Position numbers and translations under genes: made by a program. 64,000 bases of DNA from an uncultured Clostridia bacterium (GTDB taxonomy: Bacteria; Bacillota; Clostridia; Oscillospirales; Ruminococcaceae): assembly GCA_947625125.1 (NCBI GenBank), contig CANQNF010000015.1, forward strand, positions 1 to 64,000, given 5' to 3'. Positions 15,095 to 18,415 of this stretch are shown here, piece by piece (within the stretch, counting starts at the first letter, position 1; the number at the start of each line of letters is the position of its first letter). Below the pieces are notes generated by a model. It had not been told where the DNA came from. It made no database searches and was given only the letters and a program-made list of their open reading frames with translations.

Positions 15095-15346
15095 TTATTC
15101 GCCTTTTTCAAGGTCATCGAGCCTATGGTTGATGACCTTTATTTTTTCTTCAACAACGGGCATACGCTTTGCAAAGTTATTATGCTCTCTAACTTCGCGT
15201 GTGAGCTCATCGAGCTTAGTATCGGTTATCGCCTGTTTTTCCGCAAGCTCGCCGCTTATGCGTCGATTTGAAGCCGCGTTGCTGATTATTACGCCGATGA
15301 GCGACAACCCACCGGTAATTAAAGCCACAATTACTGCCTCAGTCAT
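15095..15346 (-). CDS. Membrane-anchored coiled-coil lysis-region protein
   Basis: An 83-residue protein: one N-terminal transmembrane helix (about 3-22) and then a heptad-patterned coiled coil (about 35-80). This resembles the XhlA-type proteins found next to phage holins. GGAGGAAATAGGT positions the start at 15346. It lies just after the reverse transcriptase terminator, so the lysis genes need read-through or a promoter I did not find. Confidence 0.65.
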   Translation of the reverse strand: MTEAVIVALITGGLSLIGVIISNAASNRRISGELAEKQAITDTKLDELTREVREHNNFAKRMPVVEEKIKVINHRLDDLEKGE

Positions 15347-15361
15347 ACCTATTTCCTCCAT

Positions 15362-15390
15362 AAAAATTCCCCGATTAGAAATAATCGGGG
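15362..15390 (-). terminator. Terminator of the avd-TR-RT transcript
   Basis: A perfect 9-bp stem (15369-15377 with 15382-15390, loop TTTC on the minus strand) is followed on that strand by AATTTTTA. It overlaps the last codons of the reverse transcriptase. Confidence 0.85.
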
Positions 15391-16493
15391 TAGTCCTCCT
15401 CATCGGGATATTCTTCTACAAATTTTTTCACCAAAGCGAAGTCGTTTACGACTTTGTTTCTCAAAGCATCGCAGTCGCAGTATTTCATCAAACCGAGGTA
15501 GCTCCTTATAACGCTAAGACAATAATCCTGCGGGAGTTCCCCCGTACTGTAATGCTCCATTACATATTTGAGGTGCTGCTTCATATGAAGCGTGGTAGAT
15601 CTGCGCAGTTCAATCTTATGCGGCCAAACTCTGTATCCGACGAATTCCACGCCCGAATCATACGGTCGGATTTCGGTTTTGGCGTTCAGATTGAGTCCGA
15701 GCCTATCATACAGAAAGCCCTCAAAGCTGCCGAGAATGTCGTGCGCCTGCTGCTTGCTCGGGACAAGGAATATCATATCGTCCATAGTTCGAATATAGTA
15801 ATCCGGTCTGAGCTCACGTTTCATGAAATGATCAGCGGGGTTTAAAACTACATTCCCGGTCATCTGCGAAATAAGGCTCCCGACCTGCATACCTATTCCG
15901 AATATTCTCTCACACTCGGTCACGTCAGACGCTTCCAGAGGGATTCCGTATGCCCTACCGTCGCACTTGATAGCCTGCTCCAGAAACCACATCATATCGG
16001 GATCATCGAGCGGGCGCCCAAGCTCGGCAAGCTGCACTTCATAGGGTATGCGAAAGAAAAACTTGGCAATATCCATTTTGCACAGATACCACGGTTCTTT
16101 CTTATTCTGAATTATACGCATCCAGTATTGAAGCTTCTGCGCTGATTTTAGCGGTCCTTTTTCCTTGATCGAGCCGTAGCTATGCTCATAAAATGAGCGG
16201 GAATATATAGGCCAAAGCACGTTATACGCCGCACAATTTGCCACGCGGTACTCAAAAGGAATCACAGTGATAATACGCTTTTTCGGGTAATACTCCAAGA
16301 ACTCGTGCATGTGGTCTACCTTATAGGTTTTCCAGATGAGCTGATTTTGCGTATTTATCAGCCGCTCCTCGAGATTCGCTGAATAGGAAAGCACTTCGCC
16401 CTTGTAGCGCTTGTTTTTGCGTGCAAGGATATAACCGTCATACAAGTTCTGATAGTCAATAAATCGTTCAAAAACATGACTGTGCTTTTCCAT
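15375..16493 (-). CDS. DGR reverse transcriptase
   Basis: A 372-residue reverse transcriptase that copies the template repeat RNA into adenine-mutagenised cDNA. Motif A is KMDIAKFFF with catalytic Asp. Motif 4 is VGSLISQ, the xGxxxSQ form that marks DGR-type enzymes rather than the QGxxxSP of group II introns. The active-site loop is IRTMDDMIF, so Thr replaces the usual Tyr of YxDD. GGGAGG precedes the ATG. It follows Avd and TR in the standard DGR order. There is no maturase or endonuclease domain. Confidence 0.95.
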   Translation of the reverse strand: MEKHSHVFERFIDYQNLYDGYILARKNKRYKGEVLSYSANLEERLINTQNQLIWKTYKVDHMHEFLEYYPKKRIITVIPFEYRVANCAAYNVLWPIYSRSFYEHSYGSIKEKGPLKSAQKLQYWMRIIQNKKEPWYLCKMDIAKFFFRIPYEVQLAELGRPLDDPDMMWFLEQAIKCDGRAYGIPLEASDVTECERIFGIGMQVGSLISQMTGNVVLNPADHFMKRELRPDYYIRTMDDMIFLVPSKQQAHDILGSFEGFLYDRLGLNLNAKTEIRPYDSGVEFVGYRVWPHKIELRRSTTLHMKQHLKYVMEHYSTGELPQDYCLSVIRSYLGLMKYCDCDALRNKVVNDFALVKKFVEEYPDEEDYPDYF

Positions 16494-16638
16494 ATTCAGA
16501 TCCTCCCGGTGCTGCGCTTTTCAGCGTGAGCGGAATACGCAGCTAAGTGTTTGCCCGCCGAAGCAGAAGAAGCAAATCCCTTATACCCCTTGTACTGATT
16601 GTGTCCCGGTAGGCTCACAATATCTGACTTACGGGGGC

Positions 16639-16753
16639 AAGCCGCGCGGAAGCCAATGTTGCCGTTGGAGTTCGAGCGAGGGTTGTTGCAGTTGACAGCG
16701 AAGACGCCCGCCCTCGAGGAATTGTTCCAGTTGCCACCGCAGATGAAACTACG
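16639..16753 (-). repeat. DGR template repeat (TR)
   Basis: A 115-bp segment matching the 3' end of the variable-protein gene at 17323-17437. Nine positions differ (16660, 16666, 16684, 16687, 16693, 16723, 16725, 16726, 16731), and each is a T on the plus strand, that is an A in the transcribed template. The first 21 bp (16639-16659) are identical and GC-rich and serve as the IMH-like boundary. In the reading frame of the variable protein, TR carries AAC/AAT codons at all eight changed sites, which gives the widest choice of residues after adenine mutagenesis. Confidence 0.97.
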
Positions 16754-16772
16754 ATATAATTTGCTCCTTATG

Positions 16773-17117
16773 TCAGCCCTGGCTCTTGACGGTTTTAAGC
16801 CAGGCGCCAAGCATCTTTCCAATTTCCACCGACTTGCCGCTCCAAATCTCGTATTTTTTGGGCGGCAAAAAGCCGAGCGAGTATGATATCCTCAGATATG
16901 CTCTCAGCTTGGTGTTTGCGACATCAAATTCCTGCAAGGTGGTTTTCTTGTAATACTTTTTCTGCGCTTCGATGCACTTTTCAAGCATTACGTCCATACA
17001 TCTTTTGATGTCTGTTCCGAGAGCATATTTTTCGGATTTCGGGAATTGAGCAATCGCAGGATAAGCGTATTCCATCATGTCATACACCTTTTGGAGTAAA
17101 ACAAACTCTTCTGCCAT
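16773..17117 (-). CDS. avd: Avd, DGR accessory variability protein
   Basis: A 114-residue, highly helical, basic protein of the Avd/four-helix-bundle family, which forms a pentameric barrel, binds the reverse transcriptase and the TR RNA and is required for retrohoming. Family-like segments are FPKSEKYALGTDIKRCM and the C-terminal RAYLRISYSLGFLP. ATG 17117 follows GGGAGGAAA. It ends 20 bp before TR. Confidence 0.92.
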   Translation of the reverse strand: MAEEFVLLQKVYDMMEYAYPAIAQFPKSEKYALGTDIKRCMDVMLEKCIEAQKKYYKKTTLQEFDVANTKLRAYLRISYSLGFLPPKKYEIWSGKSVEIGKMLGAWLKTVKSQG

Positions 17118-17147
17118 TGTCTTTCCTCCCGAACGAATATTAGTGCT

Positions 17148-17176
17148 ATTATACATTAAAAGTCACCGCCTGTAAT
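17148..17176 (-). promoter_or_regulatory. Candidate promoter of avd-TR-RT
   Basis: On the minus strand a perfect TATAAT (17148-17153) directly preceded by TG lies 30 bp before the avd start. The -35 (ATTACA at 17171-17176) is weak. With the terminator just upstream it suggests that the mutagenesis genes are transcribed separately from the tail operon. Confidence 0.6.
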
Positions 17177-17219
17177 GGAATCGTAATAATATAACGAAAA
17201 TCGTAATGGTGAAATTCTG

Positions 17220-17250
17220 AAAAATCGCCCGCTCCGCTTCGCGGAGCGGG
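17220..17250 (-). terminator. Terminator after the variable-protein gene
   Basis: A perfect 10-bp stem (17228-17237 with 17241-17250, 3-nt loop) is followed on the minus strand by CGATTTTT. It marks the end of the tail operon. Confidence 0.9.
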
Positions 17251-17267
17251 TAAACGTTAGAATATGT

Positions 17268-17287
17268 GGCTCCGCTACCGCGGAGCC
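17268..17287 (-). other. DGR target-site hairpin downstream of VR
   Basis: A perfect 8-bp stem GGCTCCGC / GCGGAGCC with a 4-nt loop (GGTA on the minus strand), 35 bp beyond the 3' edge of VR and 12 bp past the stop codon. In Bordetella phage BPP-1 a hairpin/cruciform with an 8-bp stem and 4-nt loop just after VR is needed for efficient retrohoming; the geometry is the same here. It lacks a T-run, and the real terminator follows separately. Confidence 0.85.
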
Positions 17288-17299
17288 GTCAGAACACGG

Positions 17300-18415
17300 T
17301 TAAGCAGGTGGCAGGTCGGCGTAAGCCGCGCGGAAGCCAATGTAGCCGTGGGAGTTCGAGCGAGGGTCGTGGCAGTAGACAGCGAAGACGCCCGCCCTCG
17401 AGGAATAGAACCAGCTGCCACCGCAGATGAAACTACGCTCATCGTCGCTGTTTCTGAAGTAGAAGTAGTCTCCTTCATACTTTTCAAGGCAGTCCTGAAC
17501 GGGCAGCAGACCGAGCGCCTGAAGAATATGCTGAGCAGGCTCAGTGACCTTCTCCTCGGCAGTGACGTCTTTGAACAAGCAGCCCGGCCACTCTTCTTCA
17601 CCGTTGATCTTGGTGAGAACGCCGGTGATCCACTTAGCCTTGTTTTCAACCCAGTCAACCTTAAGGCTGTTGGCAGTTGTGCCGGAGCCGTTAGGCTTGA
17701 TGAGCTTGCCGGTGGTGCCGTCGATGGCGTACCAGAGCTGCGAGCCGGAGGCCTGACTGTTGTCGGGATCCGCTGCGTCGTTGCCGAATGTTACGCCGTC
17801 GAGGGAGATTACCTGGAGCTCGCCGTGAACGAGACGGATACCGCCGACCCATTCCCAGACGTTTCCGTTCATATCCCAGATACCGTCGGGTTCGCCGTTG
17901 TGAGACCAACTGAGCGGGCCGGTGCCGGTTGCTACTCTCTGGCGCCGTCCCTGATCGTCACGAGCGCAGGATTCGATAGCCTTGTAGATGGTCTCGCTGT
18001 GATCCTTGCCATAGTCATTGTTGCCTTTGGGGAGAGTGCCGTTTTTCATGCACCACAGCGCAACTGCCATCCACTCGAGGCGGGTCTGCAAATGCCAACC
18101 CTCGCCCTTGGCGGTGCATCTGTCAACAGCGGTATCAAGAGTGATATATACGGCAGGGTCGCGGTCAGGAAGAGAGTAGGCGCGGTTGGTATCAAGGCTG
18201 TTTTGGAACTTCGAGAACCAGAAGCCGCTGATCGGCTTGCCGTTGATTGTGAAAGCAGGGAACAGCTCGGTGGAAGTGCCGATTCCGATTTCTTTCCATG
18301 TGAACGCAGGAATGAACACCATTACCGACGGCATATTCTTGTCGTCGTAGATGTTTGCATTGTTAGAGCAGCCCGCCGCTTTTACGGCGAGGTCAGCAAT
18401 GTCAAAATTACTCAT
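17300..18415 (-). CDS. DGR-diversified tail protein (C-type-lectin/FGE-like fold)
   Basis: A 371-residue protein whose C-terminal domain (about 150-371) has the formylglycine-generating-enzyme/C-type-lectin look used by DGR variable proteins (GIWDMNGNVWEWVGG, FICGGSW, RSNSHGYIGFRAA). It should be the receptor-binding tip of the tail. The last about 45 residues are the variable region. Compared with TR, eight Asn codons have become Ser, Phe, Tyr, Tyr, His, Asp, His and Tyr. AAGGAGG precedes the ATG. It is the last tail gene, before Avd and the reverse transcriptase. Confidence 0.95.
   Translation of the reverse strand: MSNFDIADLAVKAAGCSNNANIYDDKNMPSVMVFIPAFTWKEIGIGTSTELFPAFTINGKPISGFWFSKFQNSLDTNRAYSLPDRDPAVYITLDTAVDRCTAKGEGWHLQTRLEWMAVALWCMKNGTLPKGNNDYGKDHSETIYKAIESCARDDQGRRQRVATGTGPLSWSHNGEPDGIWDMNGNVWEWVGGIRLVHGELQVISLDGVTFGNDAADPDNSQASGSQLWYAIDGTTGKLIKPNGSGTTANSLKVDWVENKAKWITGVLTKINGEEEWPGCLFKDVTAEEKVTEPAQHILQALGLLPVQDCLEKYEGDYFYFRNSDDERSFICGGSWFYSSRAGVFAVYCHDPRSNSHGYIGFRAAYADLPPA
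17323..17437 (-). repeat. DGR variable region (VR)
   Basis: Counterpart of TR 684 bp away. On the plus strand all nine differences are T in TR changed to A (5), G (2) or C (2), so mutagenesis reached all three alternatives. Beyond 17322 the two sequences diverge at bases other than A, which defines the boundary. It encodes residues 327-364 of the variable protein. Confidence 0.96.

What the first reader, a model, noticed from the sequence alone, without database searches (positions are those of the whole stretch)
15362..17437. Complete diversity-generating retroelement targeting the tail-tip gene
Variable protein, VR, Avd, TR and reverse transcriptase are in the standard order. TR (16639-16753) and VR (17323-17437) differ at nine positions, all of them adenines on the transcribed strand (T on +), replaced by all three other bases. 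Eight Asn codons became Ser, Phe, Tyr, Tyr, His, Asp, His and Tyr. This is direct evidence of adenine-specific mutagenesis and so of past activity in this prophage.
Basis: seen in the sequence. Interest (0 to 1): 0.93.

Follow-up and report, generated by a model that had tools for sequence, protein, structure and literature searches.

The report
Ordinary complete phage diversity-generating retroelement
A prophage carries a standard genetic device that rewrites chosen spots of a probable receptor-binding tail protein by error-prone copying of an RNA template; it is a normal member of a well-known family, with one unusual residue in its copying enzyme.

Summary
On the minus strand lie a variable protein (17300-18415), VR (17323-17437), Avd (16773-17156), TR (16639-16753) and RT (15375-16493). 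TR and VR differ at 9 of 115 positions, each a TR adenine; 8 of 9 Asn codons changed. It is a canonical Avd-type DGR: SQ-motif RT, GRNA-loop hairpin after VR, a TR-RT spacer with a covarying stem, and a C-lectin variable protein whose model matches TaqVP (TM 0.87). In 58 distinct TR/VR pairs (window plus relatives), 730 of 753 mismatches are at TR adenines. 'Tail-tip' is loose: the gene follows baseplate genes of a contractile-type phage. Past mutagenesis is shown; present activity is not. RT motif C reads TMDD; of 63 relatives 60 read YMDD and none TMDD. So: ordinary, well formed, possibly impaired. Beside the finding, the genome holds four further DGRs, one with a second VR on another contig (probably the same prophage). 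One viral relative (L018) has a 205-nt group-I-intron-like insert inside its TR but not its VR; two searches of the held library showed no report of that.

The parts
17300..18415 (-). variable protein, 371 aa, C-type lectin (FGE subtype) fold, target of the DGR
   Evidence: PF03781 over cut-off, phrog_2889 2.4e-110, 5vf4 TaqVP 3.1e-43 by sequence, model pLDDT 91.5, Foldseek TM 0.87 to 5vf4
17323..17437 (-). variable repeat VR, 3' end of the variable-protein gene
17268..17287 (-). DNA hairpin 35 nt after VR: 8-bp stem, GGTA (GRNA-type) loop; probable target-site hairpin
   Evidence: z -4.4; consensus from passages of PMC3240598
17228..17250 (-). second hairpin, 10-bp stem, GAA loop, followed by a short T run; terminator-like (inference)
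   Evidence: z -5.5
16773..17156 (-). avd, accessory variability determinant, 127 aa
   Evidence: PF22296 2.1e-30, NF033474 over cut-off, phrog_3206
16639..16753 (-). template repeat TR
16494..16638 (-). TR-RT spacer, conserved RNA structure
   Evidence: covarying stem in 28 sequences, 5 of 10 predicted pairs with two-sided changes; Rfam RT-14 at 16512-16641, 35.2 bits, below gathering 48.1, E 0.047
15375..16493 (-). reverse transcriptase, 372 aa, VGSLISQ in motif 4, TMDD in motif C
   Evidence: PF00078 over cut-off, phrog_1423, 8ub7 2.2e-25, motifs

Best explanation
A complete Avd-type DGR of a contractile-type temperate phage. Shown: gene order, TR/VR pair, adenine-only differences, target-site hairpin, conserved spacer RNA stem, C-lectin variable protein. 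Inferred from the BPP-1 mechanism: RT with Avd copies the TR RNA, primed in the spacer RNA, misinserts opposite adenines, and the cDNA replaces VR, so that progeny phages carry altered binding residues. Mutagenesis has acted on this VR in the past; whether the RT, with Thr for Tyr in motif C, still works is open.
For: Nine of nine differences at TR A (7e-8). Avd and RT families over their cut-offs. SQ motif. Hairpin. Spacer stem. TaqVP fold match and register. Relatives: 730 of 753 mismatches at TR A in 58 distinct pairs, and 102 VR differences at adenine sites against 8 elsewhere in nine close-TR pairs.
Against: Motif C TMDD, seen in none of 63 relatives. No reads or strains of this species, so activity in this prophage is untested. 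Rfam RT-14 match in the window is below its gathering score. L130, a relative, has TR and VR that differ at many non-adenine sites. Exposure of the variable residues not measured.
Confidence: 0.95

Rival explanations
1. A DGR that was active but is now dead or weak, because the RT active-site Tyr has become Thr; the VR is a frozen variant.
For: TMDD in the window, codon ACT, two base changes from TAT; of 63 relatives 60 YMDD, 2 FMDD, 1 SMDD; in the published survey Tyr is replaced by Phe in 14% and the two Asp are always kept (passage of PMC3521204).
Against: Both catalytic Asp kept, ORF full length; L008 (SMDD) and L088 (LMDD) have 11 of 11 and 19 of 19 adenine-only differences, though those could also predate their changes. 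The known dead mutant changes Tyr and both Asp (SMAA; passages).
Confidence: 0.25
2. The window VR is rewritten in trans by another DGR of the same genome.
For: Four further TR/VR pairs with RTs in the genome; the C76 RT is 38% identical and C76 has its own Avd.
Against: No other TR in the genome matches the window VR well; the C76 TR is 77% identical to the window TR over 101 nt and 72% to the window VR over 72 nt. Own RT and Avd are intact in frame.
Confidence: 0.04
3. TR and VR are an ordinary duplication with mutations that happen to fall on A.
For: TR lies in an open frame (16496-16822) in the same reading frame as VR.
Against: 7e-8 by random placement; RT, Avd, hairpin and spacer present; same pattern in 58 distinct pairs.
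Confidence: 0.005

Closest known systems
Thermus aquaticus prophage DGR (TaqVP, PDB 5vf4)
   Same: Variable-protein fold (TM 0.87); VR at the C-terminus; 6 of the 8 changed residues on TaqVP variable positions; variable protein, avd, TR order
   Different: 31% identity in the structural alignment; two changed residues (336, 349) are not variable in TaqVP; different host
Bordetella phage BPP-1 DGR (mtd/avd/TR/brt)
   Same: Order of parts, Avd, VR hairpin with GRNA loop (passages), RT kin to 8ub7 (that 8ub7 is the BPP-1 enzyme is recalled)
   Different: Mtd is only a distant fold match; RT motif C TMDD here, YMDD in BPP-1 (passage)
Faecalibacterium phage Lagaffe DGR
   Same: RT 34.5% identical over 94% of its length; Mtd-like targets in a gut Clostridia phage (passages)
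   Different: Two variable regions in Lagaffe_CP, one in the window prophage; closest RT among the named phage records is Bacillus phage BalMu-1, 42.7%

Membership tests
Diversity-generating retroelement | TR/VR near-repeat with differences at TR adenines | tested here: met
   9 of 9, 7e-8
Diversity-generating retroelement | RT with (I/V/L)GxxxSQ in motif 4 | tested here: met
   VGSLISQ; definition from a passage of PMC3521204
Diversity-generating retroelement | RT motif C YxDD (Phe in 14%) | tested here: inconclusive
   TMDD: both Asp kept, Tyr replaced by Thr; 0 of 63 relatives have Thr
Diversity-generating retroelement | Avd accessory protein (Avd-type DGRs) | tested here: met
   PF22296 and NF033474 over cut-off
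Diversity-generating retroelement | VR at the 3' end of a target gene with a C-lectin fold | tested here: met
Diversity-generating retroelement | hairpin after VR, 7-10 bp stem, GRNA loop, 4-34 bp away | tested here: met
   8 bp, GGTA, 35 nt away, one nt beyond the published range
Diversity-generating retroelement | structured spacer RNA between TR and RT | tested here: met
   covarying stem; RT-14 35.2 bits, below gathering 48.1
Diversity-generating retroelement | mutagenic retrohoming observed | not testable with these tools
   no reads or strains of this species
Group I intron (L018 insert only, not the window) | covariance model match, 5' exon ending in U, intron ending in G, P1 with U.G | tested here: inconclusive
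   RF00028 33.1 bits, below gathering 50, E 2.5e-6 and 2.4e-8; ends fit; a P1 exists but 397 of 2000 shuffles have one too
Group I intron (L018 insert only, not the window) | self-splicing | not testable with these tools
   needs in vitro transcription

The most novel reading that the evidence does not exclude
The window's DGR belongs to a family in which the template RNA can be a spliced RNA. In one viral relative (L018, RT 60% identical) the TR is interrupted by a 205-nt group-I-intron-like insert, while its VR has no insert and differs from the two TR halves at 11 positions, all TR adenines. A working DGR there would need its template spliced before, or together with, mutagenic reverse transcription. 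The window itself has no such insert, and one contig is the only case.
Probability: 0.5. Interest if true: 0.72.

Novelty: new member of a known kind. Interest (0 to 1): 0.32.

Why it matters
The window element is a well-formed example that ties target hairpin, spacer RNA and a TaqVP-type receptor together in gut Clostridia prophages. Its TMDD active site is a natural test of how much the motif C tyrosine matters for DGR cDNA synthesis. The genome, with five DGRs and a second target that seems to lie far off in the same prophage, is a good setting for asking how DGRs choose targets. The intron-split template of L018, if confirmed, would show that DGR template RNA can be processed before it is copied.

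Tried and rejected
Chance repeat or plain duplication: rejected. A second target of the window TR in its genome: none found. Close viral relatives by TR backbone: 0 in viral contigs. RTs with TMDD elsewhere: a DNA pattern gave 42 loci, in which no ORF of 60 aa or more matched the RT at E 1e-3. Phage att repeats: only 11-nt matches, not used. A paper search on HIV RT tyrosine mutants was seen as a listing only and not used. A search for papers on the RT-14 RNA gave none with that term in the ten listed. A split TR in a neighbouring RT clade: 0 of 80 loci, of which 71 have a full pair and 7 none (80 is a capped list out of 470 confirmed).

The filters (at least 60 or 75% of mismatches at A) favour DGRs. 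One search repeats the count without such a filter: 107 loci (many contigs fetched twice), 90 with a pair of 90 nt or more, 58 distinct pairs, window included. It takes the copy nearer the RT as TR. Of the 17 loci without a pair, L018 and L138 (one contig) are split by the insert; L147 has two pieces with a 3-nt shift, L022 and L114 only pieces at the locus end, as L142 (same contig as L022) would; L130 has diverged; in L005, L024, L027, L063, L136, L155 and L159 and the repeats L108, L144 and L148 the RT begins within 900 nt of the locus start, too near to hold a VR.

Full report
Observation. On the minus strand the window holds, in this order, a 371-aa variable-protein gene (17300-18415) ending in VR (17323-17437), avd (16773-17156), TR (16639-16753) and an RT gene (15375-16493). 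TR and VR align without gaps over 115 nt with nine differences, all at TR adenines. There are 22 A among the 115, so the chance of nine of nine by random placement is 7e-8. The TR search of the 3.17-Mb genome found these two places only.

What it is. Avd matches NF033474 and PF22296 over their cut-offs. The RT has VGSLISQ, the DGR-typical motif 4 (definition from a passage of PMC3521204), and matches 8ub7 at 2.2e-25. 35 nt after VR lies an 8-bp hairpin with a GGTA loop (17268-17287; z -4.4). Among 48 TR/VR loci (window included, chosen for adenine bias, some duplicates) 46 have a perfect hairpin of 7 bp or more within 100 nt after VR, against 0.92 expected by mononucleotide shuffling; 31 of 39 relatives have a GRNA loop on such a stem within 60 nt (duplicates included). 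BPP-1-like DGRs are described with 7-10-bp stems, GRNA loops and 4-34 bp spacing (passages of PMC3240598). Between TR and RT, 28 aligned spacers share a stem; 5 of the 10 predicted pairs show two-sided changes. Rfam RT-14 matches there at 35.2 bits, below its gathering score of 48.1; the spacer of the C76 element of the same genome passes it with 49.3 bits.

Variable protein. An AlphaFold2 model from 33 aligned variable proteins has mean pLDDT 91.5. Its best PDB match is TaqVP, variable protein of a Thermus aquaticus prophage DGR (TM 0.87, E 1.7e-36), followed by formylglycine-generating enzymes, PvdO, Mtd and TvpA. With the alignment (chain numbers less 4 give the paper's) and TaqVP's positions from passages of PMC6328139, changed residues 334, 337, 347, 350, 356 and 358 fall on TaqVP variable residues D348, N351, Y361, N364, R370 and G372; 336 and 349 do not. 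TaqVP's variable residues are described as solvent exposed; I did not measure exposure on the model.

Where it sits. Upstream on the same strand are Tail_P2_I and Baseplate_J genes, a hub-like protein, a minor-tail (tape-measure) protein, a weak sheath match (E 9.6e-4, below cut-off), capsid, protease, portal and terminase. An NlpC/P60-SH3 gene follows the RT further down. Right of the window a repressor-like and a serine-recombinase-like ORF (named by eye) seem to close the prophage. So the target is most likely a receptor-binding protein in tail-fibre position of a contractile-type phage rather than a tail tip.

Has it been active, and is it still? No strains or reads of this species were at hand. 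In relatives, without a base filter, 90 of 107 loci had a pair; 58 distinct pairs (window included) held 753 mismatches, 730 at TR A (1416 A sites, 5216 others), and 43 of 58 had no other mismatch; L152 had 7. Nine pairs of loci with TRs at least 97% identical differed in VR at 102 adenine sites and 8 others; L019/L020 (13 and 0) and L033/L034 (15 and 0) have identical TRs. In one search three more close-TR pairs had identical VRs, and two genomes of the window's genus (L090/L091) had identical TRs with 16 VR differences at A and 1 elsewhere. Against: L130 has TR and VR differing at many non-A sites (by eye). The window RT reads TMDD in motif C, while 63 relatives read YMDD (60), FMDD (2) or SMDD (1). 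The published survey gives Tyr, or Phe in 14% (passage). The codon is ACT, two changes from TAT, so one sequencing error does not explain it. Elements with SMDD (L008) and LMDD (L088) still have adenine-only differences, 11 of 11 and 19 of 19. I hold past activity as shown and present activity as open.

Genome context. Six further RT matches lie in the genome. C76, C55, C36 and C40 carry TR/VR pairs with 14 of 14, 25 of 25, 16 of 16 and 15 of 15 mismatches at TR A; C40 has a second, more diverged VR (21 of 30). C72 and C18 gave no pair. Avd of family PF22296 was found only in the window and on C76. The C76 TR has a second VR on contig C8 (30227-30342), 11 of 11 mismatches at A, followed by a hairpin like that of C76. 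C8 carries a prophage with the window prophage's gene order; its first bases cut a tail-protein gene whose repeats resemble those in the gene cut at the right end of C76 (by eye). So C76 and C8 are probably one prophage with two target genes far apart (inference). DGRs with several or remote VRs are known (passages of PMC3521204, PMC7517822, PMC11792537). Five DGRs in one genome looks unusual beside a cyanobacterial survey (of 52 genomes four with duplicate cassettes, one with two unique DGR-RTs), but I made no general count. A genome of the same genus (G006/L067) has the neighbouring lysis region at 98.7% identity up to window 15597, then DNA without a match to the window: of this DGR only the RT tail is there.

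An intron-like insert in a relative. In L018 (IMGVR_UViG_3300028833_000178) the TR is split by 205 nt (L018 5580-5784). Without it the TR equals those of L019 and L020 at 111 of 112 positions, and VR differs from the two halves at 11 positions, all TR adenines. The insert is the only RF00028 (group I intron) match in the 57.9-kb record (33.1 bits, below the gathering score of 50; E 2.5e-6 and 2.4e-8); a gathering-level scan did not report it. The 5' exon ends in T and the insert in G, as group I introns do (recalled). A P1 helix can form but is not significant (397 of 2000 shuffles). Its core has one weak match among phage records (66 nt, 76%, E 4e-3). It is a single contig: an intron pattern found no second one in viral contigs, and none of 80 loci of a neighbouring clade had a split TR. 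No paper of the held library has 'group I intron', 'template repeat' and 'reverse transcriptase' together; six name both group I introns and DGRs (listing; passages of one, PMC8987985, seen, treat them apart; the other five were not opened for this). The VR may also simply predate the insertion.

Verdict. A correct and precise observation of an ordinary, complete DGR; a new member of a known kind, with an unusual RT residue. More than 30,000 DGRs were already reported from metagenomes in 2021 (passage of PMC8144416).

Noticed in passing
L018:5580-5784 (IMGVR_UViG_3300028833_000178): 205-nt group-I-intron-like insert inside the template repeat of a DGR; the VR lacks it and differs from both TR halves only at adenines.
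   Followed up: partly
L080:8228-8343 (G000:C8:30227-30342) and L079:3105-3220 (G000:C76): Second, distant VR of the C76 DGR: 11 of 11 mismatches at TR A, with its own hairpin. C8 and C76 break in similar tail-gene repeats and are probably one prophage.
   Followed up: partly
L080:9239-9360: A degenerate VR-like stretch in a short ORF next to the remote variable protein, with many non-adenine differences; perhaps a relic of a further target.
   Followed up: no
G000 contigs C76, C55, C36, C40: Four further DGRs in the same genome, C40 with two VRs. Their surroundings were mostly not examined.
   Followed up: partly
window 15236-15238 region of RT motif C (RT residue 236, about 15786-15788): Motif C reads TMDD; no Thr at this place in 63 relatives.
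   Followed up: partly
L067:5800-6231 (G006): Relative of the same genus that keeps the lysis region at 98.7% identity and only the RT tail, joined to other DNA at window 15597; prophage remnant or assembly join.
   Followed up: partly
L130:about 1480-2310: Relative with RT and Avd whose TR and VR differ at many non-adenine sites; possibly a decayed DGR (by eye).
   Followed up: no
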